NCBI RefSeq assembly: GCF_000003605.2
Contig: NW_003136512.1
Location: 1 to 28,430, forward strand
Length of the DNA stretch: 28,430 nucleotides
DNA from: Saccoglossus kowalevskii
Taxonomy: Eukaryota; Hemichordata; Enteropneusta; Harrimaniidae
Direction: 5' to 3'
The notes beneath the pieces are model-generated. The model saw nothing but the letters and a program-made list of their open reading frames with translations, searched no databases and was not told the DNA's origin. Numbering within the stretch: the stretch's first letter is position 1; every line of letters begins with the position of its first letter. A program made the translations under genes and the position numbers. Shown here piece after piece: positions 1-28,430 of the stretch.

Positions 1-44
1 GTTGAGTCTTTTAGTGTGTGCACAGTGGCGTGCCACGTTAATAT
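1..44 (+). repeat. Type B monomer with one inserted C (44 bp)
   Basis: A type B copy (GTTGAG, GTGTGTGCAC, GGCGTGCC) reading GCCACGTTAATAT instead of GCCAGTTAATAT. This is the only copy of this form I saw. The window begins exactly at monomer position 1 in the phase used here, which is probably chance. The array must continue to the left, because the first base is already inside a full copy. Confidence 0.9.
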
Positions 45-87
45 GTTAAGTCTTTTAGTATGTACACAGTGGTGTGCCAGTTAATAT
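45..87 (+). repeat. Reference monomer (type A, consensus)
   Basis: First exact copy of the consensus and the commonest form. It contains a T4 tract (9-12), the 6-bp palindrome TGTACA (17-22), the inverted repeat CACA-GTGG-TGTG (21-32) and TTAATAT followed by GTTAA of the next copy, which makes an imperfect palindrome TTAATATGTTAA across each monomer boundary. It has no CpG. TAA at 3-5 and 38-40 and TAG at 12-14 close the + strand; TTA at 2-4, 11-13 and 37-39 close the - strand. Confidence 0.97.
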
Positions 88-130
88 GTTAAGTCTTTTA
101 GTATGTACACAGTGGTGTGCCAGTTAATAT

Positions 131-474
131 GTTGAGTCTTTTAGTGTGTGCACAGTGGCGTGCCAGTTAATATGTTAAGTCTATTAGTGTGTACACAGTG
201 GTGTGCCAGTTAATATGTTAAGTCTTTTAGTATGTACACAGTGGTGTGCCAGTTAATATGTTGAGTCTTTTAGTATGTACACAGTGGTGTGCCAGTTAAT
301 ATGTTGAGTCTTTTAGTGTGTGCACAGTGGCGTGCCAGTTAATATGTTAAGTCTATTAGTGTGTACACAGTGGTGTGCCAGTTAATATGTTAAGTCTATT
401 AGTATGTACACAGTGGTGTGTCAGTTAATATGTTAAGTCTATTAGCGTGTACACAGTGGTGTGACAGTTAATAT
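131..474 (+). repeat. Cassette 1: B-C-A-X-B-C-D-E (8 monomers)
   Basis: A 344-bp ordered series of variants: B 131, C 174, A 217, X 260, B 303, C 346, D 389, E 432. The C, D and E copies share TCTATTAG (T to A at monomer position 10) and end in GCC, GTC and GAC respectively; E also has TAGCGTG. The same eight-copy order recurs at 4730-5073, 5246-5589, 5848-6191, 8468-8811 and 14826-15169. Shortened forms are at 3182-3353, 13065-13279 and 26888-27059, and a reworked form is at 27275-27489. E monomers, the best tag, start at 432, 3311, 5031, 5547, 6149, 8769, 12250, 13237, 15127, 27017 and 27447. Confidence 0.93.
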
Positions 475-1420
475 GTTGAGTCTTTTAGTGTGTGCACAGT
501 GGTGTGCCAGTTAATATGTTAAGTCTTTTAGTATGTACACAGTGGTGTGCCAGTTAATATGTTAAGTCTTTTAGTATGTACACAGTGGTGTGTCAGTTAA
601 TATGTTAAGTCTATTAGTGTGTACACAGTGGTGTGCCAGTTAATATGTTAAGTCTTTTAGTATGTACACAGTGGTGTGCTAGTTAATATGTTAAGTCTTT
701 TAGTATGTACACAGTGGTGTGCCAGTTAATATGTTAAGTCTTTTAGTATGTACACAGTGGTGTGCCAGTTAATATGTTGAGTCTTTTAGTATGTACACAG
801 TGGTGTGCCAGTTAATATGTTAAGTCTTTTAGTATGTACACAGTGGTGTGCCAGTTAATATGTCAAGTCTTTTAGTGTGTACACAGTGGTGTGCCAGTTA
901 ATATGTCAAGTTATTCAGTATGTACATAGTGGTGTGCCAGTTAATATGTTAAGTCTTTTAGTATGTACACAGTAGCATGCCAGTTAATATGTTGAGTCTT
1001 TTAGTATGTACACAGTGGTGTGCCAGTTAATATGTTAAGTCTTTTAGTATGTACACAGTGGTGTGCCAGTTAATATGTCAAGTCTTTTAGTGTGTACACA
1101 GTGGTGTGCCAGTTAATATGTCAAGTCTTTCAGTATGTACACAGTGGTGTGCCAGTTAATATGTCAAGTCCTTTAGTGTGTACACAGTAGCATGCCAGTT
1201 AATATGTTAAGTCTTTTAGTGTGTGCACAGTTGTGTGTCAGTTAATATGTTAAGTCTTTTAGTATGTACACAGCGGTGTGCCAGTTAATATGTCAAGTCT
1301 TTTAGTATGTACACAGTGGTGTGCCAGTTAATATGTTAAGTCTTTTAGTGTGTACACAGTGGTGTGCCAGTTAATATGTCAAGTCGTTTAGTATGTACAC
1401 AGTGGCGTGCCAGTTAATAT

Positions 1421-1893
1421 GTTGAGTCTTTTAGTGTGTGCACAGTTGTGTGTCAGTTAATATGTCAAGTCTTTTAGTATGTACACAGCGGTGTGCCAGT
1501 TAATATGTCAAGTCTTTTAGTATGTACACAGTGGTGTGCCAGTTAATATGTTAAGTCTTTTAGTATGTACACAGTGGTGTGCCAGTTAATATGTCAAGTC
1601 TTTTAGTGTGTACACAGTGGTGTGCCAGTTAATATGTCAAGTCTTTTAGTATGTACACAGTGGTGTGCCAGTTAATATGTCAAGTCTTTTAGTATGTACA
1701 CAGTGGTGTGCCAGTTAATATGTTGAGTCTTTTAGTGTGTGCACAGTGGTGTGCCAGTTAATATGTTAAGTCTTTTAGTATGTACACAGTGGTGTGCCAG
1801 TTAATATGTTAAGTCTTTTAGTATGTACACAGTGGTGTGTCAGTTAATATGTTAAGTCTATTAGTGTGTACACAGTGGTGTGCCAGTTAATAT
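1421..1893 (+). repeat. Cassette 4: N-O core (11 monomers)
   Basis: The 473-bp order is N, O, GTCAAG-GTATG, A, GTCAAG-GTGTG, GTCAAG-GTATG twice, GTTGAG-GTGCAC-GGTG, A, A ending GTC, C. Full-order copies also start at 9929, 10961, 14138, 16116, 18606, 19208 and 26157. Shortened or rearranged ones start at 7093, 7737, 9413, 11563, 17190, 20440, 21861, 22977, 24265 and 25125; the copy at 28393 is cut by the window end. At 1464 the O copy starts GTCAAG instead of the usual GTTAAG, shared only with 16159. Confidence 0.9.
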
Positions 1894-2366
1894 GTTAAGT
1901 CTTTTAGTATGTACACAGTGGTGTGCCAGTTAATATGTTAAGTCTTTTAGTATGTACACAGTGGTGTGCCAGTTAATATGTTAAGTCTTTTAGTATGTAC
2001 ACAGTGGTGTGCCAGTTAATATGTTGAGTCTTTTAGTGTGTGCACAGTGGCGTGCCAGTTAATATGTCAAGTCTTTTAGTATGTACACAGTGGTGTGCCA
2101 GTTAATATGTTAAGTCTTTTAGTATGTACACAGTGGTGTGCCAGTTAATATGTTGAGTCTTTTAGTGTGTGCACAGTGGCGTGCCAGTTAATATGTTAAG
2201 TCTATTAGTGTGTACACAGTGGTGTGCCAGTTAATATGTTAAGTCTTTTAGTATGTACACAGTGGTGTGCCAGTTAATATGTTGAGTCTTTTAGTATGTA
2301 CACAGTGGTGTGCCAGTTAATATGTTAAGTCTATTAGTGTGTACACAGTGGTGTGTCAGTTAATAT

Positions 2367-2709
2367 GTTAAGTCTTTGAGTGTGCACACAGTTTTGTTCC
2401 AGTTAATATGTTAAGTCTTTTAGTGTGTACACAGTGGTGTGCCACTTAATATGTTAAGTCTTTTAGTATGTACACAGTAGCATGCCAGTTAATATGTTAA
2501 GTCTTTTCGTATGTACACAGTAGCATGCCAGTTAATATGTTAAGTCTTTTAGTGTGCACACAGTTTTGTGCCGTTAATATGTTAAGTCTTTTAGTGTGTA
2601 CACAGTGGTATGCCAGTTAATATGTTAAGTCTTTTAGTATGTACACAGTAGCATGCCAGTTAATATATTAAGTTTTTGAGTGTGCACACAGTTTTGTGCC
2701 AGTTAATAT
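2367..2709 (+). repeat. Cassette 2: F-G-H-H-I-J-H-K (8 monomers)
   Basis: The 343-bp order is F 2367, G 2410, H 2453, H 2496, I 2539 (42 bp), J 2581, H 2624, K 2667. F, I and K share GTGTGCACACAGTTTTGT in place of the usual GTATGTACACAGTGGTGT, giving the 10-bp palindrome GTGTGCACAC; F has TTCC and K has TTAATATATTAAG. H carries GTAGCATGCC. The second H here has TTTTCGTATG. Full copies also lie at 3612-3956, 6278-6620, 8898-9240, 12379-12721, 13366-13708 and 22162-22504; partial ones are at 23278-23535 and 27490-27575. Confidence 0.95.
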
Positions 2710-2881
2710 GTTAAGTCTTTTAGTGTGTACACAGTGGTGTGCCAGTTAATATGTCAAGTCTTTTATTATGTACACAGTGGTGTGCCAGTTAATATGTTAA
2801 GTCTTTTAGTGTGTACACAGTGCTGTGCCAGTTAATATGTCAAGTCTTTTAGTATGTACACAGTGGTGTGCCAGTTAATAT

Positions 2882-2923
2882 GTCAAGCATTTAGTATGTA
2901 CACAGTGGTGTGCCAGTTAATAT
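2882..2923 (+). repeat. Type M monomer (42 bp), a cassette 3 tag
   Basis: GTCAAGCATTTAG replaces GTCAAGTCTTTTAG, a one-base loss with a local base change. Twelve copies start at 2882, 4129, 6793, 7437, 11950, 12851, 13838, 16890, 17534, 17748, 20282 and 22677. Ten of them are followed by an H-like GTGTAC-GTAGCATGCC copy and then a GTGCACAC copy, so M marks a fixed local order. The copy at 11950 reads ATTTAATATG and is followed by GTTGAG-GTGCACAC, and the one at 20282 is deleted at its 3' end. Confidence 0.94.
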
Positions 2924-3525
2924 GTTAAGTCTTTTAGTGTGTACACAGTAGCATGCCAGTTAATATGTTAAGTCTTTTAGTGTGCACACAGTTTTGTGCC
3001 AGTTAATATGTTAAGTCTTTTAGTGTGTACACAGTGGTGTGCCAGTTAATATGTCAAGTCTTTTAGTATGTACACAGTGGTGTGCCAGTTAATATGTTAA
3101 GTCTTTTAGTGTGTACACAGTGGTGTGCCAGTTAATATGTCAAGTCTTTTAGTATGTACACAGTGGTGTGCCAGTTAATATGTTGAGTCTTTTAGTGTGT
3201 GCACAGTGGCGTGCCAGTTAATATGTTAAGTCTATTAGTGTGTACACAGTGGTGTGCCAGTTAATATGTTAAGTCTATTAGTATGTACACAGTGGTGTGT
3301 CAGTTAATATGTTAAGTCTATTAGCGTGTACACAGTGGTGTGACAGTTAATATGTTGAGTCTTTTAGTGTGTGCACAGTGGTGTGCCAGTTAATATGTTA
3401 AGTCTTTTAGTATGTACACAGTGGTGTGCCAGTTAATATGTTAAGTCTTTTAGTATGTACACAGTGGTGTGTCAGTTAATATGTTAAGTCTATTAGTGTG
3501 TACACAGTGGTGTGCCAGTTAATAT

Positions 3526-4342
3526 GTTGAGTCTTTTAGTATGTACACAGTGGTGTGCCAGTTAATATGTTAAGTCTATTAGTGTGTACACAGTGGTGTG
3601 TCAGTTAATATGTTAAGTCTTTGAGTGTGCACACAGTTTTGTTCCAGTTAATATGTTAAGTCTTTTAGTGTGTACACAGTGGTGTGCCACTTAATATGTT
3701 AAGTCTTTTAGTATGTACACAGTAGCATGCCAGTTAATATGTTAAGTCTTTTAGTATGTACACAGTAGCATGCCAGTTAATATGTTAAGTCTTTTAGTGT
3801 GCACACAGTTTTGTGCCGTTAATATGTTAAGTCTTTTAGTGTGTACACAGTGCGCTATGCCAGTTAATATGTTAAGTCTTTTAGTATGTACACAGTAGCA
3901 TGCCAGTTAATATATTAAGTTTTTGAGTGTGCACACAGTTTTGTGCCAGTTAATATGTTAAGTCTTTTAGTGTGTACACAGTGGTGTGCCAGTTAATATG
4001 TCAAGTCTTTTATTATGTACACAGTGGTGTGCCAGTTAATATGTTAAGTCTTTTAGTGTGTACACAGTGGTGTGCCAGTTAATATGTCAAGTCTTTTAGT
4101 ATGTACACAGTGGTGTGCCAGTTAATATGTCAAGCATTTAGTATGTACACAGTGGTGTGCCAGTTAATATGTTAAGTCTTTTAGTGTGTACACAGTAGCA
4201 TGCCAGTTAATATGTTAAGTCTTTTAGTGTGCACACAGTTTTGTGCCAGTTAATATGTTAAGTCTTTTAGTGTGTACACAGTGGTGTGCCAGTTAATATG
4301 TCAAGTCTTTTAGTATGTACACAGTGGTGTGCCAGTTAATAT
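3526..4342 (+). repeat. Segmental copy, partner of 2281-3095
   Basis: Adjacent copy, two bases longer because of the J insertion at 3826-3870. It ends where an O-type monomer begins at 4343, which in other places follows N rather than this GTCAAG copy, so 4343 looks like a recombination joint. Confidence 0.92.
3612..3956 (+). repeat. Cassette 2 copy with 2-base insertion
   Basis: Same eight-monomer order as 2367-2709. The J copy (3826-3870, 45 bp) reads CAGTGCGCTATGCC instead of CAGTGGTATGCC, adding two bases and two CpG-like steps absent from the other J copies. I saw this form nowhere else in the window. Confidence 0.95.
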
Positions 4343-4729
4343 GTTAAGTCTTTTAGTATGTACACAGCGGTGTGCCAGTTAATATGTCAAGTCTTTTAGT
4401 ATGTACACAGTGGTGTGCCAGTTAATATGTTAAGTCTTTTAGTATGTACACAGTGGTGTGCCAGTTAATATGTCAAGTCTTTTAGTGTGTACACAGTGGT
4501 GTGCCAGTTAATATGTCAAGTCTTTTAGTATGTACACAGTGGTGTGCCAGTTAATATGTCAAGTCTTTTAGTATGTACACAGTGGTGTGCCAGTTAATAT
4601 GTTGAGTCTTTTAGTGTGTGCACAGTGGTGTGCCAGTTAATATGTTAAGTCTTTTAGTATGTACACAGTGGTGTGCCAGTTAATATGTTAAGTCTTTTAG
4701 TATGTACACAGTGGTGTGCCAGTTAATAT

Positions 4730-5073
4730 GTTGAGTCTTTTAGTGTGTGCACAGTGGCGTGCCAGTTAATATGTTAAGTCTATTAGTGTGTACACAGTGG
4801 TGTGCCAGTTAATATGTTAAGTCTTTTAGTATGTACACAGTGGTGTGCCAGTTAATATGTTGAGTCTTTTAGTATGTACACAGTGGTGTGCCAGTTAATA
4901 TGTTGAGTCTTTTAGTGTGTGCACAGTGGCGTGCCAGTTAATATGTTAAGTCTATTAGTGTGTACACAGTGGTGTGCCAGTTAATATGTTAAGTCTATTA
5001 GTATGTACACAGTGGTGTGTCAGTTAATATGTTAAGTCTATTAGCGTGTACACAGTGGTGTGACAGTTAATAT
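4730..5073 (+). repeat. Cassette 1 copy (B-C-A-X-B-C-D-E)
   Basis: Full eight-monomer cassette ending in E at 5031. It is the first of three closely spaced copies. Its E is 516 bp (12 monomers) before the next E, with the intervening four monomers mostly type A. Confidence 0.92.
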
Positions 5074-5245
5074 GTTGAGTCTTTTAGTGTGTACACAGTG
5101 GTGTGCCAGTTAATATGTTAAGTCTTTTAGTATGTACACAGTGGTGTGCCAGTTAATATGTTAAGTCTTTTAGTATGTACACAGTGGTGTGCCAGTTAAT
5201 ATGTTAAGTCTTTTAGTATGTACACAGTGGTGTGCCAGTTAATAT

Positions 5246-5589
5246 GTTGAGTCTTTTAGTGTGTGCACAGTGGCGTGCCAGTTAATATGTTAAGTCTATT
5301 AGTGTGTACACAGTGGTGTGCCAGTTAATATGTTAAGTCTTTTAGTATGTACACAGTGGTGTGCCAGTTAATATGTTGAGTCTTTTAGTATGTACACAGT
5401 GGTGTGCCAGTTAATATGTTGAGTCTTTTAGTGTGTGCACAGTGGCGTGCCAGTTAATATGTTAAGTCTATTAGTGTGTACACAGTGGTGTGCCAGTTAA
5501 TATGTTAAGTCTATTAGTATGTACACAGTGGTGTGTCAGTTAATATGTTAAGTCTATTAGCGTGTACACAGTGGTGTGACAGTTAATAT
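5246..5589 (+). repeat. Cassette 1 copy (B-C-A-X-B-C-D-E)
   Basis: Full cassette ending in E at 5547. The following GTTGAG copy at 5590 has GTGTAC rather than GTGTGCAC; the same substitution follows the E at 5031, supporting a direct 12-monomer duplication of this stretch. Confidence 0.92.
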
Positions 5590-5847
5590 GTTGAGTCTTT
5601 TAGTGTGTACACAGTGGTGTGCCAGTTAATATGTTAAGTCTTTTAGTATGTACACAGTGGTGTGCCAGTTAATATGTTAAGTCTTTTAGTATGTACACAG
5701 TGGTGTGCCAGTTAATATGTTGAGTCTTTTAGTGTGTGCACAGTGGCGTGCCAGTTAATATGTTAAGTCTTTTAGTATGTACACAGTGGTGTGCCAGTTA
5801 ATATGTTAAGTCTTTTAGTATGTACACAGTGGTGTGCCAGTTAATAT

Positions 5848-6191
5848 GTTGAGTCTTTTAGTGTGTGCACAGTGGCGTGCCAGTTAATATGTTAAGTCTA
5901 TTAGTGTGTACACAGTGGTGTGCCAGTTAATATGTTAAGTCTTTTAGTATGTACACAGTGGTGTGCCAGTTAATATGTTGAGTCTTTTAGTATGTACACA
6001 GTGGTGTGCCAGTTAATATGTTGAGTCTTTTAGTGTGTGCACAGTGGCGTGCCAGTTAATATGTTAAGTCTATTAGTGTGTACACAGTGGTGTGCCAGTT
6101 AATATGTTAAGTCTATTAGTATGTACACAGTGGTGTGTCAGTTAATATGTTAAGTCTATTAGCGTGTACACAGTGGTGTGACAGTTAATAT
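5848..6191 (+). repeat. Cassette 1 copy (B-C-A-X-B-C-D-E)
   Basis: Full cassette ending in E at 6149, 602 bp (14 monomers) after the previous E. Two CTATT monomers then lead straight into cassette 2 at 6278, so cassettes 1 and 2 are directly linked here, as they are at 8468-9240. Confidence 0.92.
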
Positions 6192-6277
6192 GTTAAGTCT
6201 ATTAGTATGTACACAGTGGTGTGCCAGTTAATATGTTAAGTCTATTAGTGTGTACACAGTGGTGTGTCAGTTAATAT

Positions 6278-6620
6278 GTTAAGTCTTTGAGTGTGCACAC
6301 AGTTTTGTTCCAGTTAATATGTTAAGTCTTTTAGTGTGTACACAGTGGTGTGCCACTTAATATGTTAAGTCTTTTAGTATGTACACAGTAGCATGCCAGT
6401 TAATATGTTAAGTCTTTTAGTATGTACACAGTAGCATGCCAGTTAATATGTTAAGTCTTTTAGTGTGCACACAGTTTTGTGCCGTTAATATGTTAAGTCT
6501 TTTAGTGTGTACACAGTGGTATGCCAGTTAATATGTTAAGTCTTTTAGTATGTACACAGTAGCATGCCAGTTAATATATTAAGTTTTTGAGTGTGCACAC
6601 AGTTTTGTGCCAGTTAATAT
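6278..6620 (+). repeat. Cassette 2 copy (F-G-H-H-I-J-H-K)
   Basis: Full copy following cassette 1 and two CTATT monomers. K at 6578 is also the left end of the block shared with 16675-17747. Confidence 0.95.
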
Positions 6621-7650
6621 GTTAAGTCTTTTAGTGTGTACACAGTGGTGTGCCAGTTAATATGTCAAGTCTTTTATTATGTACACAGTGGTGTGCCAGT
6701 TAATATGTTAAGTCTTTTAGTGTGTACACAGTGGTGTGCCAGTTAATATGTCAAGTTTTTTAGTATGTACACAGTGGTGTGCCAGTTAATATGTCAAGCA
6801 TTTAGTATGTACACAGTGGTGTGCCAGTTAATATGTTAAGTCTTTTAGTGTGTACACAGTAGCATGCCAGTTAATATGTTAAGTCTTTTAGTGTGCACAC
6901 AGTTTTGTGCCAGTTAATATGTTAAGTCTTTTAGTGTGTACACAGTGGTGTGCCAGTTAATATGTCAAGTCTTTTAGTATGTACACAGTGGTGTGCCAGT
7001 TAATATGTTAAGTCTTTTAGTGTGTACACAGTGGTGTGCCAGTTAATATGTCAAGTCTTTTAGTATGTACACAGTGGCGTGCCAGTTAATATGTTGAGTC
7101 TTTTAGTGTGTGCACAGTTGTGTGTCAGTTAATATGTTAAGTCTTTTAGTATGTACACAGCGGTGTGCCAGTTAATATGTCAAGTCTTTTAGTATGTGCA
7201 CAGTGGTGTGCCAGTTAATATGTTAAGTCTTTTAGTGTGTACACAGTAGCATGCCAGTTAATATGTTAAGTCTTTTAGTGTGCACACAGTTTTGTGCCAG
7301 TTAATATGTTAAGTCTTTTAGTGTGTACACAGTGGTGTGCCAGTTAATATGTCAAGTCTTTTAGTGTGTACACAGTGGTGTGCCAGTTAATATGTCAAGT
7401 CTTTTAGTATGTACACAGTGGTGTGCCAGTTAATATGTCAAGCATTTAGTATGTACACAGTGGTGTGCCAGTTAATATGTTAAGTCTTTTAGTGTGTACA
7501 CAGTAGCATGCCAGTTAATATGTTAAGTCTTTTAGTGTGCACACAGTTTTGTGCCAGTTAATATGTTAAGTCTTTTAGTGTGTACACAGTGGTGTGCCAG
7601 CTAATATGTCAAGTCTTTTAGTATGTACACAGTGGTGTGCCAGTTAATAT
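6578..7650 (+). repeat. Segmental copy, partner of 16675-17747
   Basis: Twenty-five monomers from K through L, M, N, O and a second M match 16675-17747 at offset 10,097. Shared rare markers: GTCAAGTTTTTTAG at 6750 and 16847, and GTATGTGCACAG in the copies at 7179 and 17276. Differences seen: GCCAGCTAAT near 7600 here, and TTTTATTGTGCAC near 17376 in the partner. Confidence 0.93.
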
Positions 7651-8811: not shown

Positions 8812-8897
8812 GTTAAGTCTATTAGTATGTACACAGTGGTGTGCCAGTTAATATGTTAAATCTATTAGTGTGTACACAGTGGTGTGTCAGTTAATAT

Positions 8898-9498: not shown

Positions 9499-11519
9499 GT
9501 CAAGTCTTTTAGTATGTACACAGTGGTGTGCCAGTTAATATGTTAAGTCTTTTAGTATGTACACAGTGGTGTGCCAGTTAATATGACAAGTCTTTTAGTG
9601 TGTACACAGTGGTGTGCCAGTTAATATGTCAAGTCTTTCAGTATGTACACAGTGGTGTGCCAGTTAATATGTCAAGTCTTTTAGTGTGTACACAGTAGCA
9701 TGCCAGTTAATATGTTAAGTCTTTTAGTGTGCACACAGTTTTGTGCCAGTTAATATGTTAAGTCTTTTAGTGTGTACACAGTGGTGTGCCAGTTAATATG
9801 TCAAGTCTTTTAGTATGTACACAGTGGTGTGCCAGTTAATATGTTAAGTCTTTTAGTGTGTACACAGTGGTGTGCCAGTTAATATGTCAAGTCTTTTAGT
9901 ATGTACACAGTGGCGTGCCAGTTAATATGTTGAGTCTTTTAGTGTGTGCACAGTTGTGTGTCAGTTAATATGTTAAGTCTTTTAGTATGTACACAGCGGT
10001 GTGCCAGTTAATATGTCAAGTCTTTTAGTATGTACACAGTGGTGTGCCAGTTAATATGTTAAGTCTTTTAGTATGTACACAGTGGTGTGCCAGTTAATAT
10101 GTCAAGTCTTTTAGTGTGTACACAGTGGTGTGCCAGTTAATATGTCAAGTCTTTTAGTATGTACACAGTGGTGTGCCAGTTAATATGTCAAGTCTTTTAG
10201 TATGTACACAGTGGTGTGCCAGTTAATATGTTGAGTCTTTTAGTGTGTGCACAGTGGTGTGCCAGTTAATATGTTAAGTCTTTTAGTATGTACACAGTGG
10301 TGTGCCAGTTAATATGTTAAGTCTTTTAGTATGTACACAGTGGTGTGTCAGTTAATATGTTAAGTCTATTAGTGTGTACACAGTGGTGTGCCAGTTAATA
10401 TGTTAAGTCTTTTAGTATGTACACAGTGGTGTGCCAGTTAATATGTTCAGTCTTTTAGTATGTACACAGTGGTGTGCCAGTTAATATGTTAAGTCTTTTA
10501 GTATGTACACAGTGGTGTGCCAGTTAATATGTTGAGTCTTTTAGTATGTACACAGTGGTGTGCCAGTTAATATGTTAAGTCTTTTAGTATGTACACAGTG
10601 GTGTGCCAGTTAATATGTCAAGTCTTTTAGTGTGTACACAGTGGTGTGCCAGTTAATATGTCAAGTCTTTCAGTATGTACACAGTGGTGTGCCAGTTAAT
10701 ATGTCAAGTCTTTTAGTGTGTACACAGAAGCATGCCAGTTAATATGTTAAGTCTTTTAGTGTGCACACAGTTTTGTGCCAGTTAATATGTTAAGTCTTTT
10801 AGTGTGTACACAGTGGTGTGCCAGTTAATATGTCAAGTCTTTTAGTATGTACACAGTGGTGTGCCAGTTAATATGTTAAGTCTTTTAGTGTGTACACTGT
10901 GGTGTGCCAGTTAATATGTCAAGTCTTTTAGTATGTACACAGTGGCGTGCCAGTTAATATGTTGAGTCTTTTAGTGTGTGCACAGTTGTGTGTCAGTTAA
11001 TATGTTAAGTCTTTTAGTATGTACACAGCGGTGTGCCAGTTAATATGTCAAGTCTTTTAGTATGTACACAGTGGTGTGCCAGTTAATATGTTAAGTCTTT
11101 TAGTATGTACACAGTGGTGTGCCAGTTAATATGTCAAGTCTTTTAGTGTGTACACAGTGGTGTGCCAGTTAATATGTCAAGTCTTTTAGTATGTACACAG
11201 TGGTGTGCCAGTTAATATGTCAAGTCTTTTAGTATGTACACAGTGGTGTGCCAGTTAATATGTTGAGTCTTTTAGTGTGTGCACAGTGGTGTGCCAGTTA
11301 ATATGTTAAGTCTTTTAGTATGTACACAGTGGTGTGCCAGTTAATATGTTAAGTCTTTTAGTATGTACACAGTGGTGTGTCAGTTAATATGTTAAGTCTA
11401 TTAGTGTGTACACAGTGGTGTGCCAGTTAATATGTTAAGTCTTTTAGTATGTACACAGTGGTGTGCCAGTTAATATGTTAAGTCTTTTAGTATGTACACA
11501 GTGGTGTGCCAGTTAATAT
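9499..11519 (+). repeat. Largest segmental copy, partner of 24695-26715
   Basis: Forty-seven monomers match 24695-26715 at a constant offset of 15,196 bp, 2,021 bp with no net indel. Shared markers include the unique pair of GACAAG starts at 9585 and 24781, the TCTTTCAG copies, and N at 9929/25125 and 10961/26157. Differences seen: GTTCAG at 10445, CAGAAGC near 10727 and GTACACTG near 10896 here; GTTATATC at 25598 and GTGATG near 26097 in the partner; and an A ending GTC at 10316 facing a GTCAAG-GTGTG copy ending GTC at 25512. Confidence 0.93.
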
Positions 11520-14782: not shown

Positions 14783-16674
14783 GTTAAGTCTTTTAGTATG
14801 TACACAGTGGTGTGCCAGTTAATATGTTGAGTCTTTTAGTGTGTGCACAGTGGCGTGCCAGTTAATATGTTAAGTCTATTAGTGTGTACACAGTGGTGTG
14901 CCAGTTAATATGTTAAGTCTTTTAGTATGTACACAGTGGTGTGCCAGTTAATATGTTGAGTCTTTTAGTATGTACACAGTGGTGTGCCAGTTAATATGTT
15001 GAGTCTTTTAGTGTGTGCACAGTGGCGTGCCAGTTAATATGTTAAGTCTATTAGTGTGTACACAGTGGTGTGCCAGTTAATATGTTAAGTCTATTAGTAT
15101 GTACACAGTGGTGTGTCAGTTAATATGTTAAGTCTATTAGCGTGTACACAGTGGTGTGACAGTTAATATGTTGAGTCTTTTAGTGTGTGCACAGTGGTGT
15201 GCCAGTTAATATGTTAAGTCTTTTAGTATGTACACAGTGGTGTGCCAGTTAATATGTTAAGTCTTTTAGTATGTACACAGTGGTGTGTCAGTTAATATGT
15301 TAAGTCTATTAGTGTGTACACAGTGGTGTGCCAGTTAATATGTTAAGTCTTTTAGTATGTACACAGTGGTGTGCCAGTTAATATGTTAAGTCTTTTAGTA
15401 TGTACACAGTGGTGTGCCAGTTAATATGTTAAGTCTTTTAGTATGTACACAGTGGTGTGCCAGTTAATATGTTGAGTCTTTTAGTATGTACACAGTGGTG
15501 TGCCAGTTAATATGTTAAGTCTTTTAGTATGTACACAGTGGTGTGCCAGTTAATATGTCAAGTCTTTTAGTGTGTACACAGTGGTGTGCCAGTTAATATG
15601 TCAAGTTATTCAGTATGTACACAGTGGTGTGCCAGTTAATATGTTAAGTCTTTTAGTATGTACACAGTAGCATGCCAGTTAATATGTTGAGTCTTTTAGT
15701 ATGTACACAGTGGTGTGCCAGTTAATATGTTAAGTCTTTTAGTATGTACACAGTGGTGTGCCAGTTAATATGTCAAGTCTTTTAGTGTGTACACAGTGGT
15801 GTGCCAGTTAATATGTCAAGTCTTTCAGTATGTACACAGTGGTGTGCCAGTTAATATGTCAAGTCTTTTAGTGTGTACACAGTAGCATGCCAGTTAATAT
15901 GTTAAGTCTTTTAGTGTGTGCACAGTTGTGTGTCAGTTAATATGTTAAGTCTTTTAGTATGTACACAGCGGTGTGCCAGTTAATATGTCAAGTCTTTTAG
16001 TATGTACACAGTGGTGTGCCAGTTAATATGTTAAGTCTTTTAGTGTGTACACAGTGGTGTGCCAGTTAATATGTCAAGTCTTTTAGTATGTACACAGTGG
16101 CGTGCCAGTTAATATGTTGAGTCTTTTAGTGTGTGCACAGTTGTGCGTCAGTTAATATGTCAAGTCTTTTAGTATGTACACAGCGGTGTGCCAGTTAATA
16201 TGTCAAGTCTTTTAGTATGTACACAGTGGTGTGCCAGTTAATATGTTAAGTCTTTTAGTATGTACACAGTGGTGTGCCAGTTAATATGTCAAGTCTTTTA
16301 GTGTGTACACAGTGGTGTGCCAGTTAATATGTCAAGTCTTTTAGTATGTACACAGTGGTGTGCCAGTTAATATGTCAAGTCTTTTAGTATGTACACAGTG
16401 GTGTGCCAGTTAATATGTTGAGTCTTTTAGTGTGTGCACAGTGGTGTGCCAGTTAATATGTTAAGTCTTTTAGTATGTACACAGTGGTGTGCCAGTTAAT
16501 ATGTTAAGTCTTTTAGTATGTACACAGTGGTGTGTCAGTTAATATGTTAAGTCTATTAGTGTGTACACAGTGGTGTGCCAGTTAATATGTTAAGTCTTTT
16601 AGTATGTACACAGTGGTGTGCCAGTTAATATGTTAAGTCTTTTAGTATGTACACAGTGGTGTGCCAGTTAATAT
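14783..16674 (+). repeat. Segmental copy, partner of 88-1979
   Basis: Second member of a 1,892-bp duplicate pair. It includes cassette 1, the GTTATTCAG monomer at 15600, two H-like copies and an N-O core beginning at 16116. Its right end at 16674/16675 is directly joined to a different source block (partner 6578-7650). Confidence 0.93.
14826..15169 (+). repeat. Cassette 1 copy (B-C-A-X-B-C-D-E)
   Basis: Full cassette matching 131-474 at an offset of 14,695 bp as part of the duplicated block 14783-16674. Only one A copy separates it from the preceding B at 14740, against two at the window start. Confidence 0.92.
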
Positions 16675-20110: not shown

Positions 20111-20320
20111 GTTAAGTCTTTTAGTGTGCACACAGTTTTGTGCCGTTAATATGTTAAGTCTTTTAGTGTGTACACAGTGGTGTGCCAGTTAATATGTTAA
20201 GTCTTTTAGTGTGTACACAGTGGTGTGCCAGTTAATATGTCAAGTCTTTTAGTATGTACACAGTGGTGTGCCAGTTAATATGTCAAGCATTTAGTATGAA
20301 CACAGTGGTGTGCCAGTCTT
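20111..20320 (+). repeat. Rearranged cassette 2-3 joint: lone I, then M
   Basis: A solitary 42-bp I monomer at 20111-20152 follows X. It is then followed by GTGTAC, GTGTAC, GTCAAG and M (20282), the same four copies that follow K at 13709-13838. Relative to the 13.5-kb copy, J, H and K are missing after I, and F, G, H and H are missing before it. Confidence 0.9.
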
Positions 20321-20359
20321 TTAGTATGTACACAGTGGTGTGCCAGTTAATATGTTAAG
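20282..20359 (+). repeat. 13-base deletion joining two monomers
   Basis: M at 20282 reads to GCCAG at 20312-20316 and then straight into TCTTTTAG of the next monomer. Thirteen bases covering TTAATAT and GTTAAG are gone. The intact sequence has AGT on both sides of the lost segment, so the break has a 3-base microhomology. It is the only indel over two bases that I found. The same monomer has GTATGAACACAG, another private change. Confidence 0.95.
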
Positions 20360-20611: not shown

Positions 20612-21041
20612 GTCAAGTCTTTTAGTGTGTACACAGTGGTGTGCCAGTTAATATGTCAAGTCTTTTAGTATGTACACAGTGGTGTGCCAGTTAATATGTC
20701 AAGTCTTTTAGTATGTACACAGTGGTGTGCCAGTTAATATGTTGAGTCTTTTAGTGTGTGCACAGTGGTGTGCCAGTTAATATGTTAAGTCTTTTAGTAT
20801 GTACACAGTGGTGTGCCAGTTAATATGTCAAGTCTTTTAGTGTGTACACAGTGGTGTGCCAGTTAATATGTCAAGTCTTTTAGTATGTACACAGTGGTGT
20901 GCCAGTTAATATGTCAAGTCTTTTAGTATGTACACAGTGGTGTGCCAGTTAATATGTTGAGTCTTTTAGTGTGTGCACAGTGGTGTGCCAGTTAATATGT
21001 TAAGTCTTTTAGTATGTACACAGTGGTGTGCCAGTTAATAT
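20612..21041 (+). repeat. Five-monomer tandem duplication (2 x 215 bp)
   Basis: GTCAAG-GTGTG, GTCAAG-GTATG, GTCAAG-GTATG, GTTGAG-GTGCAC-GGTG and A at 20612-20826 are repeated in the same order at 20827-21041, inside an N-O core that started at 20440. After the second set the usual A ending GTC and C follow at 21042 and 21085. Confidence 0.92.
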
Positions 21042-21772
21042 GTTAAGTCTTTTAGTATGTACACAGTGGTGTGTCAGTTAATATGTTAAGTCTATTAGTG
21101 TGTACACAGTGGTGTGCCAGTTAATATGTTAAGTCTTTTAGTATGTACACAGTGGTGTGCCAGTTAATATGTTAAGTCTTTTAGTATGTACACAGTGGTG
21201 TGCCAGTTAATATGTTAAGTCTTTTAGTATGTACACAGTGGTGTGCCAGTTAATATGTTGAGTCTTTTAGTGTGTGCACAGTGGCGTGCCAGTTAATATG
21301 TTAAGTCTTTTAGTATGTACACAGTGGTGTGCCAGTTAATATGTTAAGTCTTTTAGTATGTACACAGTGGTGTGCCAGTTAATATGTTGAGTCTTTTAGT
21401 GTGTGCACAGTGGCGTGCCAGTTAATATGTTAAGTCTATTAGTGTGTACACAGTGGTGTGCCAGTTAATATGTTAAGTCTATTAGTATGTACACAGTGGT
21501 GTGCCAGTTAATATGTCAAGTCTTTTAGTATGTACACAGTGGTGTGCCAGTTAATATGTTGAGTCTTTTAGTGTGTGCACAGTGGTGTGCCAGTTAATAT
21601 GTTAAGTCTTTTAGTATGTACACAGTGGTGTGCCAGTTAATATGTTAAGTCTTTTAGTATGTACACAGTGGTGTGTCAGTTAATATGTTAAGTCTATTAG
21701 TGTGTACACAGTGGTGTGCCAGTTAATATGTTAAGTCTTTTAGTATGTACACAGTGGTGTGCCAGTTAATAT

Positions 21773-21860
21773 GTTAAAGTCTTTTAGTATGTACACAGTG
21801 GTGTGCCAGTTAATATGTCAAGTCTTTTAGTATGTACACAGTGGCGTGCTCAGTTAATAT
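21773..21860 (+). repeat. Two consecutive 44-bp monomers
   Basis: The copy at 21773 starts GTTAAAG (one extra A) and the next, at 21817, has GCTCAGTT (one extra T or C). Length-variant copies are rare here and two in a row is unusual; N follows at 21861. Confidence 0.93.
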
Positions 21861-22418
21861 GTTGAGTCTTTTAGTGTGTGCACAGTTGTGTGTCAGTTAA
21901 TATGTTAAGTCTTTTAGTATGTACACAGCGGTGTGCCAGTTAATATGTCAAGTCGTTTAGTATGTACACAGTGGTGTGCCAGTTAATATGTTAAGTCTTT
22001 TAGTATGTACACAGTGGTGTGCCAGTTAATATGTCAAGTCTTTTAGTGTGTACACAGTGGTGTGCCAGTTAATATGTCAAGTCTTTTAGTATGTACACAG
22101 TGATGTGCCAGTTAATATGTTAAGTCTTTTAGTATGTACATAGTGGTGTGCCACTTAATATGTTAAGTCTTTGAGTGTGCACACAGTTTTGTTCCAGTTA
22201 ATATGTTAAGTCTTTTAGTGTGTACACAGTGGTGTGCCACTTAATATGTTAAGTCTTTTAGTATGTACACAGTAGCATGCCAGTTAATATGTTAAGTCTT
22301 TTAGTATGTACACAGTAGCATGCCAGTTAATATGTTAAGTCTTTTAGTGTGCACACAGTTTTGTGCCGTTAATATGTTAAGTCTTTTAGTGTGTACACAG
22401 TGGTATGCCAGTTAATAT
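21817..22418 (+). repeat. Segmental copy, partner of 22934-23535
   Basis: Fourteen monomers from a GGCG copy through N, O, the marker copies GTGATGTGCC and TACATAG, and F-G-H-H-I-J match at an offset of 1,116 to 1,117 bp. GTCGTTTAG at 21947 faces GTCTTTTAG at 23063. The partner lacks H-K afterwards. Confidence 0.92.
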
Positions 22419-22504
22419 GTTAAGTCTTTTAGTATGTACACAGTAGCATGCCAGTTAATATATTAAGTTTTTGAGTGTGCACACAGTTTTGTGCCAGTTA
22501 ATAT
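22162..22504 (+). repeat. Cassette 2 copy (F-G-H-H-I-J-H-K)
   Basis: Full copy preceded by two marker monomers, GTGATGTGCC and TACATAGTGGTGTGCCACTT, that also precede the truncated copy at 23278. Here F follows a GCCACTT (G-like) end rather than a CTATT monomer. Confidence 0.95.
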
Positions 22505-22933
22505 GTTAAGTCTTTTAGTGTGTACACAGTGGTGTGCCAGTTAATATGTCAAGTCTTTTATTATGTACACAGTGGTGTGCCAGTTAATATGTTAAGTCTT
22601 TTAGTGTGTACACAGTGGTGTGCCAGTTAATATGTCAAGTCTTTTAGTATGTACACAGTGGTGTGCCAGTTAATATGTCAAGCATTTAGTATGTACACAG
22701 TGGTGTGCCAGTTAATATGTTAAGTCTTTTAGTGTGTACACAGTAGCATGCCAGTTAATATGTTAAGTCTTTTAGTGTGCACACAGTTTTGTGCCAGTTA
22801 ATATGTTAAGTCTTTTAGTGTGTACACAGTGGTGTGCCAGTTAATATGTCAAGTCTTTTAGTATGTACACAGTGGTGTGCCAGTTAATATGTTAAGTCTT
22901 TTAGTGTGTACACAGTGGTGTGCCAGTTAATAT

Positions 22934-23535
22934 GTCAAGTCTTTTAGTATGTACACAGTGGCGTGCCAGTTAATATGTTGAGTCTTTTAGTGTGTGCACA
23001 GTTGTGTGTCAGTTAATATGTTAAGTCTTTTAGTATGTACACAGCGGTGTGCCAGTTAATATGTCAAGTCTTTTAGTATGTACACAGTGGTGTGCCAGTT
23101 AATATGTTAAGTCTTTTAGTATGTACACAGTGGTGTGCCAGTTAATATGTCAAGTCTTTTAGTGTGTACACAGTGGTGTGCCAGTTAATATGTCAAGTCT
23201 TTTAGTATGTACACAGTGATGTGCCAGTTAATATGTTAAGTCTTTTAGTATGTACATAGTGGTGTGCCACTTAATATGTTAAGTCTTTGAGTGTGCACAC
23301 AGTTTTGTTCCAGTTAATATGTTAAGTCTTTTAGTGTGTACACAGTGGTGTGCCACTTAATATGTTAAGTCTTTTAGTATGTACACAGTAGCATGCCAGT
23401 TAATATGTTAAGTCTTTTAGTATGTACACAGTAGCATGCCAGTTAATATGTTAAGTCTTTTAGTGTGCACACAGTTTTGTGCCGTTAATATGTTTAAGTC
23501 TTTTAGTGTGTACACAGTGGTATGCCAGTTAATAT
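22934..23535 (+). repeat. Segmental copy, partner of 21817-22418
   Basis: Second copy of the 602-bp block; the markers GTGATGTGCC (near 23217) and TACATAG (near 23257) repeat those near 22101 and 22138. Between the two copies lie H, K, L, M and following monomers (22419-22933). Confidence 0.92.
23278..23535 (+). repeat. Truncated cassette 2 (F-G-H-H-I-J only)
   Basis: F 23278, G 23321, H 23364, H 23407, I 23450 and J 23492. J is 44 bp because of one extra T (GTTTAAG at 23492). The expected H and K are missing; at 23536 the array switches to a GTCAAG run matching 17919 onward, so this is a breakpoint. Confidence 0.93.
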
Positions 23536-24307
23536 GTCAAGTCTTTTAGTATGTACACAGTGGTGTGCCAGTTAATATGTTAAGTCTTTAGTGTGTACAC
23601 AGTGGTGTGCCAGTTAATATGTCAAGTCTTTTAGTATGTACACAGTGGCGTGCCAGTTAATATGTTGAGTCTTTTAGTATGTACACAGTGGTGTGCCAGT
23701 TAATATGTTAAGTCTTTTAGTATGTACACAGTGGTGTGCCATTTAATATATTAAGTCTTTTAGTATGTACACAGTGGTGTGCCATTTAATATATTAAGTC
23801 TTTTAGTATGTACACAGTGGTGTGCCAGTTAATATGTTAAGTCTTTTAGTGTGCACACAGTTTGTGCCAGTTAATATGTTAAGTCTTTTAGTATGTACAC
23901 AGTGGTGTGCCAGTTAATATGTCAAGTCTTTTAGTGTGTACACAGTGGTGTGCCAGTTAATATGTCAAGTCTTTCAGTATGTACACAGTGGTGTGCCAGT
24001 TAATATGTCAAGTCTTTTAGTGTGTACACAGTAGCATGCCAGTTAATATGTTAAGTCTTTTAGTGTGCACACCGTTTTGTGCCAGTTAATATGTTAAGTC
24101 TTTTAGTGTGTACACAGTGGTGTGCCAGTTAATATGTCAAGTCTTTTAGTATGTACACAGTGGTGTGCCAGTTAATATGTTAAGTCTTTTAGTGTGTACA
24201 CAGTGGTGTGCCAGTTAATATGTCAAGTCTTTTAGTATGTACACAGTGGCGTGCCAGTTAATATGTTGAGTCTTTTAGTGTGTGCACAGTTGTGTGTCAG
24301 TTAATAT
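23536..24307 (+). repeat. Segmental copy related to 17919-18648 and 27749-28430
   Basis: Third member of a triplicated module. After X at 23664 it has A 23707 and two ATTAAG copies (23750 and 23793, both after GCCATTTAATAT), where the 17.9-kb copy has A plus one ATTAAG and the 27.7-kb copy has one ATTAAG and no A. The copy at 23579 is 42 bp (TCTTTAG). The region from 23836 matches 18177-18992 on to 24651. Confidence 0.91.
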
Positions 24308-24651
24308 GTTAAGTCTTTTAGTATGTACACAGCGGTGTGCCAGTTAATATGTCAAGTCTTTTAGTATGTACACAGTGGTGTGCCAGTTAATATGTTAAGT
24401 CTTTTAGTATGTACACAGTGGTGTGCCAGTTAATATGTCAAGTCTTTTAGTGTGTACACAGTGGTGTGCCAGTTAATATGTCAAGTCTTTTAGTATGTAC
24501 ACAGTGGTGTGCCAGTTAATATGTCAAGTCTTTTAGTATGTACACAGTGGTGTGCCAGTTAATATGTTGAGTCTTTTAGTGTGTGCACAGTGGTGTGCCA
24601 GTTAATATGTTAAGTCTTTTAGTATGTACACAGTGGTGTGCCAGTTAATAT
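23921..24651 (+). repeat. Segmental copy, partner of 24781-25511
   Basis: Seventeen monomers match 24781-25511 at an offset of exactly 860 bp (20 monomers), N 24265 facing N 25125. The first copy of the partner starts GACAAG and this one GTCAAG; the CACACCG at 24050 here is CACACAG in the partner. Confidence 0.9.
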
Positions 24652-24694
24652 GTTGAGTCTTTTAGTATGTACACAGTGGTGTGCCAGTTAATAT

Positions 24695-26715
24695 GTCAAG
24701 TCTTTTAGTATGTACACAGTGGTGTGCCAGTTAATATGTTAAGTCTTTTAGTATGTACACAGTGGTGTGCCAGTTAATATGACAAGTCTTTTAGTGTGTA
24801 CACAGTGGTGTGCCAGTTAATATGTCAAGTCTTTCAGTATGTACACAGTGGTGTGCCAGTTAATATGTCAAGTCTTTTAGTGTGTACACAGTAGCATGCC
24901 AGTTAATATGTTAAGTCTTTTAGTGTGCACACAGTTTTGTGCCAGTTAATATGTTAAGTCTTTTAGTGTGTACACAGTGGTGTGCCAGTTAATATGTCAA
25001 GTCTTTTAGTATGTACACAGTGGTGTGCCAGTTAATATGTTAAGTCTTTTAGTGTGTACACAGTGGTGTGCCAGTTAATATGTCAAGTCTTTTAGTATGT
25101 ACACAGTGGCGTGCCAGTTAATATGTTGAGTCTTTTAGTGTGTGCACAGTTGTGTGTCAGTTAATATGTTAAGTCTTTTAGTATGTACACAGCGGTGTGC
25201 CAGTTAATATGTCAAGTCTTTTAGTATGTACACAGTGGTGTGCCAGTTAATATGTTAAGTCTTTTAGTATGTACACAGTGGTGTGCCAGTTAATATGTCA
25301 AGTCTTTTAGTGTGTACACAGTGGTGTGCCAGTTAATATGTCAAGTCTTTTAGTATGTACACAGTGGTGTGCCAGTTAATATGTCAAGTCTTTTAGTATG
25401 TACACAGTGGTGTGCCAGTTAATATGTTGAGTCTTTTAGTGTGTGCACAGTGGTGTGCCAGTTAATATGTTAAGTCTTTTAGTATGTACACAGTGGTGTG
25501 CCAGTTAATATGTCAAGTCTTTTAGTGTGTACACAGTGGTGTGTCAGTTAATATGTTAAGTCTATTAGTGTGTACACAGTGGTGTGCCAGTTAATATGTT
25601 ATATCTTTTAGTATGTACACAGTGGTGTGCCAGTTAATATGTTAAGTCTTTTAGTATGTACACAGTGGTGTGCCAGTTAATATGTTAAGTCTTTTAGTAT
25701 GTACACAGTGGTGTGCCAGTTAATATGTTGAGTCTTTTAGTATGTACACAGTGGTGTGCCAGTTAATATGTTAAGTCTTTTAGTATGTACACAGTGGTGT
25801 GCCAGTTAATATGTCAAGTCTTTTAGTGTGTACACAGTGGTGTGCCAGTTAATATGTCAAGTCTTTCAGTATGTACACAGTGGTGTGCCAGTTAATATGT
25901 CAAGTCTTTTAGTGTGTACACAGTAGCATGCCAGTTAATATGTTAAGTCTTTTAGTGTGCACACAGTTTTGTGCCAGTTAATATGTTAAGTCTTTTAGTG
26001 TGTACACAGTGGTGTGCCAGTTAATATGTCAAGTCTTTTAGTATGTACACAGTGGTGTGCCAGTTAATATGTTAAGTCTTTTAGTGTGTACACAGTGATG
26101 TGCCAGTTAATATGTCAAGTCTTTTAGTATGTACACAGTGGCGTGCCAGTTAATATGTTGAGTCTTTTAGTGTGTGCACAGTTGTGTGTCAGTTAATATG
26201 TTAAGTCTTTTAGTATGTACACAGCGGTGTGCCAGTTAATATGTCAAGTCTTTTAGTATGTACACAGTGGTGTGCCAGTTAATATGTTAAGTCTTTTAGT
26301 ATGTACACAGTGGTGTGCCAGTTAATATGTCAAGTCTTTTAGTGTGTACACAGTGGTGTGCCAGTTAATATGTCAAGTCTTTTAGTATGTACACAGTGGT
26401 GTGCCAGTTAATATGTCAAGTCTTTTAGTATGTACACAGTGGTGTGCCAGTTAATATGTTGAGTCTTTTAGTGTGTGCACAGTGGTGTGCCAGTTAATAT
26501 GTTAAGTCTTTTAGTATGTACACAGTGGTGTGCCAGTTAATATGTTAAGTCTTTTAGTATGTACACAGTGGTGTGTCAGTTAATATGTTAAGTCTATTAG
26601 TGTGTACACAGTGGTGTGCCAGTTAATATGTTAAGTCTTTTAGTATGTACACAGTGGTGTGCCAGTTAATATGTTAAGTCTTTTAGTATGTACACAGTGG
26701 TGTGCCAGTTAATAT
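24695..26715 (+). repeat. Largest segmental copy, partner of 9499-11519
   Basis: Second member of the 2.0-kb pair. Its own left half is in turn a duplicate of 23921-24651 at 860 bp (20 monomers), so this copy lies in a region with two nested duplication events. Confidence 0.93.
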
Positions 26716-27489
26716 GTTAAGTCTTTTAGTATGTACACAGTGGTGTGCCAGTTAATATGTTGAGTCTTTTAGTGTGTGCACAGTGGCGTGCCAGTTAATA
26801 TGTTAAGTCTTTTAGTATGTACACAGTGGTGTGCCAGTTAATATGTTAAGTCTTTTAGTATGTACACAGTGGTGTGCCAGTTAATATGTTGAGTCTTTTA
26901 GTGTGTGCACAGTGGCGTGCCAGTTAATATGTTAAGTCTATTAGTGTGTACACAGTGGTGTGCCAGTTAATATGTTAAGTCTATTAGTATGTACACAGTG
27001 GTGTGTCAGTTAATATGTTAAGTCTATTAGCGTGTACACAGTGGTGTGACAGTTAATATGTTGAGTCTTTTAGTGTGTGCACAGTGGTGTGCCAGTTAAT
27101 ATGTTAAGTCTTTTAGTATGTACACAGTGGTGTGCCAGTTAATATGTTAAGTCTTTTAATATGTACACAGTGGCGTGCCAGTTAATATGTTAAGTCTATT
27201 AGTGTGTACACAGTGGTGTGCCAGTTAATATGTTAAGTCTTTTAGTATGTACACAGTGGTGTGCCAGTTAATATGTTGAGTCTTTTAGTGTGTGCACAGT
27301 GGCGTGCCAGTTAATATGTTAAGTCTATTAGTGTGTACACAGTGGTGTGCCAGTTAATATGTTAAGTCTATTAGTATGTACACAGTGGTGTGCCAGTTAA
27401 TATGTTAAGTCTTTTAGTATGTACACAGTGGTGTGCCAGTTAATATGTTAAGTCTATTAGCGTGTACACAGTGGTGTGACAGTTAATAT

Positions 27490-27575
27490 GTTAAGTCTTT
27501 GAGTGTGCACACAGTGTTGTTCCAGTTAATATGTTAAGTCTTTTAGTGTGTACACAGTGGTGTGCCACTTAATAT
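27490..27575 (+). repeat. Cassette 2 remnant (F-G only)
   Basis: An F copy with GTGTTGTTCC instead of GTTTTGTTCC, followed by G (GCCACTT). It follows E at 27447 directly, skipping the two CTATT monomers seen elsewhere, and is followed by A and then the block matching 17790 onward. Both flanks are therefore rearranged. Confidence 0.9.
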
Positions 27576-27618
27576 GTTAAGTCTTTTAGTATGTACACAG
27601 TGGTGTGCCAGTTAATAT

Positions 27619-28430
27619 GTTAAGTCTTTTTAGTGTGTACACAGTAGCATGCCAGTTAATATGTTAAGTCTTTTAGTGTGCACACAGTTTTGTGCCAGTT
27701 AATGTGTTAAGTCTTTTAGTGTGTACACAGTGGTGTGCCAGTTAATATGTCAAGTCTTTTAGTATGTACACAGTGGTGTGCCAGTTAATATGTTAAGTCT
27801 TTTAGTGTGTACACAGTGGTGTGCCAGTTAATATGTCAAGTCTTTTAGTATGTACACAGTGGCGTGCCAGTTAATATGTTGAGTCTTTTAGTATGTACAC
27901 AGTGGTGTGCCAGTTAATATATTAAGTCTTTTAGTATGTACACAGTGGTGTGCCAGTTAATATGTTAAGTCTTTTAGTGTGCACACAGTTTGTGCCAGTT
28001 AATATGTTAAGTCTTTTAGTATGTACACAGTGGTGTGCCAGTTAATATGTCAAGTCTTTTAGTGTGTACACAGTGGTGTGCCAGTTAATATGTCAAGTCT
28101 TTCAGTATGTACACAGTGGTGTGCCAGTTAATATGTCAAGTCTTTTAGTGTGTACACAGTAGCATGCCAGTTAATATGTTAAGTCTTTTAGTGTGCACAC
28201 CGTTTTGTGCCAGTTAATATGTTAAGTCTTTTAGTGTGTACACAGTGGTGTGCCAGTTAATATGTCAAGTCTTTTAGTATGTACACAGTGGTGTGCCAGT
28301 TAATATGTTAAGTCTTTTAGTGTGTACACAGTGGTGTGCCAGTTAATATGTCAAGTCTTTTAGTATGTACACAGTGGCGTGCCAGTTAATATGTTGAGTC
28401 TTTTAGTGTGTGCACAGTTGTGTGTCAGTG
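27619..28430 (+). repeat. Segmental copy, partner of 17790-18649, cut by window end
   Basis: Begins with a 44-bp H-like copy (TCTTTTTAG, one extra T) and follows the 17.8-kb block to the last base. The final partial copy, N at 28393, is 38 bases long and ends CAGTG where CAGTT is expected; one base is too little to call an array edge. Confidence 0.92.

What the first reader, a model, noticed from the sequence alone, without database searches (positions are those of the whole stretch)
1..28430. A 28-kb, 661-copy 43-bp satellite with mosaic higher-order structure
The variant order is not random, yet no single higher-order period fits. Cassettes of 8, 8, about 10 and 11 monomers recur, joined at varying distances (10, 12, 14, 20, 23, 24, 26, 29 and 61 monomers). 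This is unlike the regular higher-order repeats of human alpha satellite (established for that family) and suggests repeated local amplification with shifting unit size. The family is unknown to me, so it may be undescribed.
Basis: partly seen in the sequence, partly recalled or inferred. Interest (0 to 1): 0.7.

Follow-up and report, generated by a model that had tools for sequence, protein, structure and literature searches.

The report
Scrambled 43-base tandem repeat array
A long stretch of acorn-worm-like DNA is one 43-base unit repeated about 660 times; the order of its variants looks patchy because one 46-unit pattern has probably been cut and re-duplicated many times, which is ordinary behaviour for tandem repeats.

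Summary
The window is one whole contig, a single 43-bp tandem array (TRF 660.9 copies; contig length), with strongly non-random variant order and no dominant period. The reading needs correcting. One ring of 46 monomers (1,976 bp) threads all 28,430 bases with 94 mismatches and 84 jumps, 73 of 84 exactly in monomer phase; order-shuffled controls need 316-373 jumps. So it is best read as one long higher-order repeat scrambled by in-register duplications and deletions; a tuned simulation gives similar statistics. At up to 3 mismatches the family sits in two places of the 572-Mb assembly: here, and in a more divergent 45.5-copy array on contig C2957 that begins at the stop codon of an inferred gene and ends 98 bases before the first AATAAA, so probably in a 3' UTR. 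The mitochondrial contig has the gene arrangement published for Saccoglossus kowalevskii. Ten of ten other satellite contigs tested are also non-randomly ordered. Verdict: a new member of a known kind (large minisatellite or satellite with degraded HOR structure). No function is indicated.

The parts
1..28430 (+). Uninterrupted 43-bp tandem array, consensus GTTAAGTCTTTTAGTATGTACACAGTGGTGTGCCAGTTAATAT; both contig ends lie inside the array
   Evidence: TRF 660.9 copies over 1-28429; 662 monomers parsed, 629 of 662 of 43 bp; the contig C2837 is 28,430 bases long
5606..7187 (+). Longest unbroken stretch of the 46-monomer ring (1,582 of 1,976 bp)
   Evidence: Base-level threading
88..1979 (+). First copy of a duplicated block, monomers 2-45 (0-based)
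   Evidence: 39 of 44 monomers identical at lag 342 without gaps; coordinates
14783..16674 (+). Second copy of that block, monomers 344-387
   Evidence: all 7 ring junctions of the first copy recur here in the same order, with one more at the end
9499..11519 (+). First copy of a second duplicated block, monomers 221-267
   Evidence: 42 of 47 monomers identical at lag 354 without gaps; coordinates
24695..26715 (+). Second copy of that block, monomers 575-621
   Evidence: 3 of the 4 junctions of the first copy recur in order
20290..20347 (+). Local 30-bp partial-monomer duplication, the largest out-of-phase event
   Evidence: TRF second row; jump with phase offset 13 at 20315

Best explanation
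Non-coding tandem-repeat DNA whose structure comes from recombination within the array. Shown: a 43-bp unit; a 46-monomer (1,976-bp) order that recurs in pieces; rearrangements that keep monomer phase. Inferred: an array of variant monomers was amplified as a roughly 2-kb higher-order repeat into many copies, then unequal exchange, gene conversion or replication slippage between misaligned but in-register monomers duplicated and deleted blocks of about 10-20 monomers, some 80-100 times, until no complete copy of the unit and no constant period remained. A second, more divergent and so probably older or less homogenised array of the same family lies directly behind the stop codon of an inferred gene on contig C2957. 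I infer no host function for the window array; it probably evolves neutrally.
For: Ring threading: 94 mismatches and 84 jumps over 28,430 bp; 73 of 84 jumps exactly in phase, 82 of 84 within 1 bp. Controls: 4 runs with the window's monomers shuffled gave 340-373 jumps, 4 with the ring order shuffled 316-342; the best-scoring of 28 contiguous 46-mers tried as ring needed 102 jumps and 130 mismatches. Hold-out word test. Simulation with 14 ring copies and 80-100 in-register indels of mean 12-18 monomers: medians of 72.5-90.5 jumps (observed 84), 49-67 distinct junctions (observed 55), lag-46 match 0.060-0.062 (observed 0.057). Longest stop-free stretch 51 codons in six frames. Ten of ten other short-unit satellite contigs tested show ordered monomers above the shuffle mean.
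Against: The ring was read off the same window, so its fit is partly by construction; the controls and the hold-out test answer this only in part. No complete 46-monomer copy exists in the window (longest unbroken stretch 1,582 bp), so the ancestral regular HOR is inferred, not seen. The simulation was tuned: a first mutation setting gave far too few shared runs (medians 8-48 against 201), the rate was then lowered, and still gives too few shared runs (medians 140-170.5 at 80-100 events), too few distinct types (62-71 against 82) and a longer longest run (27-35 against 21); it also compares true simulated jumps with jumps inferred by threading. The 120-event settings gave too many jumps (104.5-105.5). 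Growth by random duplication from one or three ring copies fitted worse, so large-unit amplification is needed by these models but not demonstrated. The sequencing technology is unknown, so assembly mis-joins cannot be excluded.
Confidence: 0.8

Rival explanations
1. Assembly artefact: the true array is a regular 46-monomer HOR, and the assembler mis-joined near-identical copies in register, producing the mosaic.
For: Misassembly would also keep monomer phase; the contig begins and ends inside the array; the assembly has 4,830 contigs and many of the small contigs fetched are pure tandem arrays.
Against: A gap-free block of 44 monomers (1.9 kb) recurs 14.7 kb away with all 7 of its ring junctions in the same order, and a block of 47 recurs 15.2 kb away with 3 of 4; independent mis-joins would hardly repeat the same chain, though one mis-joined path used twice could. 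Ten other satellites in the same assembly also show ordered monomers.
Confidence: 0.12
2. The window is a greatly expanded allele, or the other haplotype, of the C2957 gene-side array, not a separate locus.
For: Those are the only two places of the family found in the assembly; the two consensus sequences are identical; the window has no flanks that would place it.
Against: Only 2 of the 36 distinct monomer forms at C2957 occur in the window; common window variants are absent or rare there (C at column 3: 178 of 662 against 0 of 47; C at column 19: 50 of 662 against 0 of 47; G at column 16: 300 of 662 against 5 of 47). A recent expansion should share more.
Confidence: 0.15
3. A functional array, for example centromeric or another chromatin-organising satellite.
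For: Long arrays with HORs are typical of centromeres in several taxa (recalled).
Against: Two loci only and about 30 kb in a 572-Mb assembly; no CENP-B-box-like motif by the consensus I recalled (0 on both strands of the window), which is a weak test outside mammals. The assembly may hold only part of the array.
Confidence: 0.05

Closest known systems
Hypervariable minisatellites with variant-repeat (MVR) maps, such as human MSY1 (PMC2599865, abstract seen)
   Same: Short unit (11-60 bp class by PMC12692304, passages seen), few loci, mosaic blocks of variant units; the abstract finds gene conversion by synthesis-dependent strand annealing likely for MSY1
   Different: Array at least 28 kb, 662 units against a 77-repeat progenitor allele studied for MSY1; a 46-unit order underlies it; no alleles or mutants could be compared here
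Human alpha satellite cascading and variant HORs (PMC11050224, abstract seen)
   Same: A multi-monomer order with repeated monomer types inside the unit and many variant copies
   Different: There 65% of 429 copies of the 15mer are canonical; here no canonical copy survives; unit 43 bp instead of about 171 bp (the latter as in the start of an abstract on macaques, PMC9221937, listing)
Satellites with long homogenised arrays plus short divergent arrays near genes (described in PMC12692304, passages seen)
   Same: One long array, and one short array of greater divergence beside an inferred gene
   Different: Only one array of each sort is found in the assembly

Membership tests
Satellite or large minisatellite DNA | Head-to-tail tandem repeats of one non-coding unit over a long array | tested here: met
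   660.9 copies of 43 bp over 28,429 bp; longest stop-free stretch 51 codons
Satellite or large minisatellite DNA | Unit of 11-60 bp (minisatellite class by length, PMC12692304 passage) | tested here: met
   43 bp (passage)
Satellite DNA in the sense of an abundant family | Many copies at many or large loci in the genome | tested here: inconclusive
   Two loci in the assembly: 666 = 634 + 32 and 672 = 632 + 40 matches; the true array length is unknown because the contig ends inside it
Regular higher-order repeat array (Willard type) | A constant multi-monomer period, with copies nearly identical at that lag | tested here: not met
   Lag-46 match 5.7%, best lag up to half the array 12.9%
Irregular, variant or cascading HOR array | A common monomer order present in copies with internal duplications and deletions | tested here: met
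   Ring threading against controls; the ring itself was derived from the window
Hypervariable minisatellite | Length and internal-structure polymorphism between alleles | not testable with these tools
   One sequence of the array only
Centromeric satellite | Centromere location, CENP-A association | not testable with these tools
   No flanks, no ChIP
Named satellite in Dfam or Repbase | Sequence match to a named family | not testable with these tools
   Those libraries are not available here; a 37-bp exact pattern in IMG/VR gave 0, which says little about an animal repeat

The most novel reading that the evidence does not exclude
The family was born in the 3' untranslated region of one gene (the first, degenerate monomer on C2957 starts at that gene's stop codon) and later seeded, at a second site, an array that became a 46-unit higher-order repeat: a traceable case of a satellite with a gene-tail origin.
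Probability: 0.2. Interest if true: 0.45.

Novelty: new member of a known kind. Interest (0 to 1): 0.22.

Why it matters
As a repeat family it is ordinary. Its use is methodological: the absence of a higher-order period did not mean the absence of a higher-order unit; ring threading recovered a 46-monomer order where the match at that lag is at chance. If the C2957 array really lies in a 3' UTR and is the older copy, the pair would let one follow a satellite from a gene-side seed to a long homogenised array.

Tried and rejected
Coding repeat: rejected, no stop-free stretch over 51 codons in six frames. Random order: rejected. Regular HOR with constant period: rejected. Growth by random small or large duplications from one or three ring copies: fitted worse than scrambling of a pre-formed 14-copy HOR. 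Kinship with ten other short-unit satellites and the 5S unit of the same genome: of 11 consensus sequences compared, 9 score within the range of 50 composition shuffles; the 54-bp unit of L015 (24 against a shuffle maximum of 20) and the 216-bp 5S unit (22 against 21) score slightly above it. I take these as no kinship, because the observed score is the better of two strands and the shuffles used one, but I did not test it further. A gapped self-alignment with cheap gaps was uninformative and was replaced by a stricter one. Literature: 9 searches. None of the papers listed for Saccoglossus kowalevskii with satellite DNA (3) or Saccoglossus with minisatellite (2) was about its satellites, judged from titles and abstract starts only.

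Full report
What is there. The window is the entire contig C2837 (28,430 bases) of a 572,110,611-base, 4,830-contig assembly. Tandem Repeats Finder reports one array from 1 to 28429, period 43, 660.9 copies, 92% matches. A wraparound alignment to the consensus gives 662 monomers, 629 of them 43 bp long; there are 76 distinct aligned forms (82 counting insertions, 39 of these seen once), and the mean identity to the consensus is 95.3%. No frame on either strand is open for more than 51 codons. The contig begins and ends inside the array, so its true length and its neighbours are unknown.

Is the order non-random? Yes. There are 201 exact off-diagonal runs of six or more monomers, longest 21; 50 shuffles average 0.02 such runs. 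Of 326 six-monomer words in the second half, 139 occur in the first half; 200 shuffles average 0.0 and the reversed sequence gives 0. No single lag is dominant: against 6.4% expected, the best lag up to half the array matches 12.9% of monomers. Longer lags reach 19-20% (342 and 354) and 28% (576, over 24 matches) and reflect block duplications.

What underlies it. Following the most constant successors of the rarer monomers (transition table) gives one cyclic order of 46 monomers, 1,976 bp. At monomer level the window is 65 segments of this ring, with 553 of 662 monomers exact and 630 of 662 within one difference; five shuffles need 137-146 segments with 250-277 exact. At base level the ring explains 28,430 bases with 94 mismatches and 84 jumps (55 distinct monomer-level junctions); 73 of 84 jumps are exactly in monomer phase and 82 of 84 within one base. 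With the monomers of the window shuffled, 340-373 jumps are needed (4 runs); with the ring order shuffled, 316-342 (4 runs); the best-scoring of 28 contiguous 46-mers of the window used as ring needs 102 jumps and 130 mismatches. The ring was built from the window itself, so part of the fit is by construction; the hold-out test and the controls are the answer to that. No complete ring copy survives: the longest unbroken stretch is 1,582 bp, and the match at lag 46 is 5.7%, about the chance level. Two larger duplications are visible: monomers 2-45 with 344-387 (39 of 44 identical, 14.7 kb apart) and 221-267 with 575-621 (42 of 47, 15.2 kb apart). In the first pair all 7 ring junctions of the first copy recur in the same order in the second, which has one more; in the second pair 3 of 4 recur.

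How it most likely arose. Simulations that start from 14 copies of the ring and apply 80-100 in-register duplications or deletions of mean 12-18 monomers (4 settings, 20 runs each) give medians of 72.5-90.5 jumps, 49-67 distinct junctions and a lag-46 match of 0.060-0.062, beside the observed 84, 55 and 0.057. They give fewer shared runs (medians 140-170.5 against 201), fewer distinct types (62-71 against 82) and longer longest runs (27-35 against 21); two settings with 120 events gave too many jumps (104.5 and 105.5). An earlier mutation setting gave far too few shared runs (8-48) and was lowered. Growth from one or three ring copies by random small or large duplications fits worse: far more jumps, or far longer exact repeats and fewer junctions. 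Parameters were tuned, so this shows sufficiency only. The reading is therefore: amplification as a roughly 2-kb higher-order unit, then scrambling by homologous, in-register exchange or conversion. The pathway is inferred; unequal exchange, strand-annealing conversion and slippage are not told apart here.

Where else it occurs. Two patterns from different, partly overlapping parts of the monomer, each with up to 3 mismatches, find 666 and 672 places in the assembly, all on one strand, with 0 for the backward control. The window holds 634 and 632 of them and the first 10 kb of C2957 hold 32 and 40, which together are exactly all. So at this stringency the family has two loci in this assembly. 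More diverged copies could be missed, and withheld stretches read N. The C2957 array (3580-5512, 45.5 copies by TRF; 47 full or partial monomers by my parse) is more diverse: mean pairwise identity 81% against 92% in the window (gaps counted as differences), 36 distinct forms, 2 of them shared with the window, yet with the same consensus. Upstream of it lie two inferred exons, read by eye, with a donor-like GTAAGT and an acceptor-like pyrimidine-rich tract and AG, ending in a stop codon at 3535-3537 (sequence, translation). A degenerate monomer begins at that stop codon (alignment score 40; 0 of 2000 shuffles reach it), and the first AATAAA after it is at 5610, 98 bases beyond the end of the array. 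The array probably fills most of the 3' UTR of that gene. No Pfam family matches the two exons. No transcript evidence was available, and a stretch that reads N upstream (L008:1-2475) hides what lies there.

Which organism. Contig C4830 (17,037 bases) is a mitochondrial genome: ND5 and CYTB adjacent, ND6 on the minus strand, COX1 on the minus strand, ND2 before ND1 (read by eye; rRNA and tRNA genes). [quoted passage not shown] PMC2697986 (passages seen) gives ND5-CYTB adjacency for both hemichordates. The genome is therefore most likely S. kowalevskii or a close relative. This is an inference from gene order, not a sequence match.

How ordinary is it? Of the 20 contigs fetched, two were wholly N; 12 of the 18 at least partly readable ones were tandem arrays over more than 8 of their first 10 kb, with units of 24, 26, 34, 43 (a different sequence), 44, 54, 63, 64, 65, 83, 216 (5S rDNA) and 363 bp. 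I tested the ten with units under 130 bp (the 216- and 363-bp arrays were left out): in 10 of 10 the number of exact runs of four or more monomers exceeds the mean of ten shuffles. The smallest ratio is L021 (684 against 399.3), the smallest count L020 (5 against 0.1); the first 10 kb of the window (49 against 0.1) is much like L028 (55 against 0.2).

Verdict. It is a new member of a known kind: a long minisatellite-class array with degraded higher-order structure, with MVR-type minisatellites and variant HORs as closest parallels. Nothing I found points to a host function.

Noticed in passing
G000 contigs C2832-C2836, C2838-C2841, C4825, C4827, C4828 (L015-L023, L027, L028, L030): 12 of 18 readable contigs fetched are tandem arrays over more than 8 of their first 10 kb, with 12 different unit lengths: a varied set of satellites among the small contigs of one genome.
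   Followed up: partly
L008:3535-5610 (C2957): The only other array of the family found starts at the stop codon of an inferred gene and ends 98 bases before the first AATAAA, so it probably occupies most of a 3' UTR.
   Followed up: partly
L029 (C4826:1-10000): Tandem array of about 466-bp units with tRNA-Trp genes: 13 tRNA-Trp (CCA) genes in 7.5 kb of readable sequence.
   Followed up: partly
L016 (C2833:1-10000): 5S rRNA gene array with a 216-bp unit; the Rfam scores of its copies range from 102 down to 43 bits, so some copies look degenerate.
   Followed up: no
window 1-28430: CpG is strongly depleted: 103 against about 870 expected from base composition; the 43-bp consensus itself has no CG, so this is not evidence of methylation by itself.
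   Followed up: no
L025:1-671 (C4830): The mitochondrial contig begins with 4.8 copies of a 141-bp tandem repeat.
   Followed up: no
L013 (C2830:1205-6231): Two long open frames on opposite strands (627 and 607 codons) that resemble each other and look like glycoside hydrolases, by eye only.
   Followed up: no
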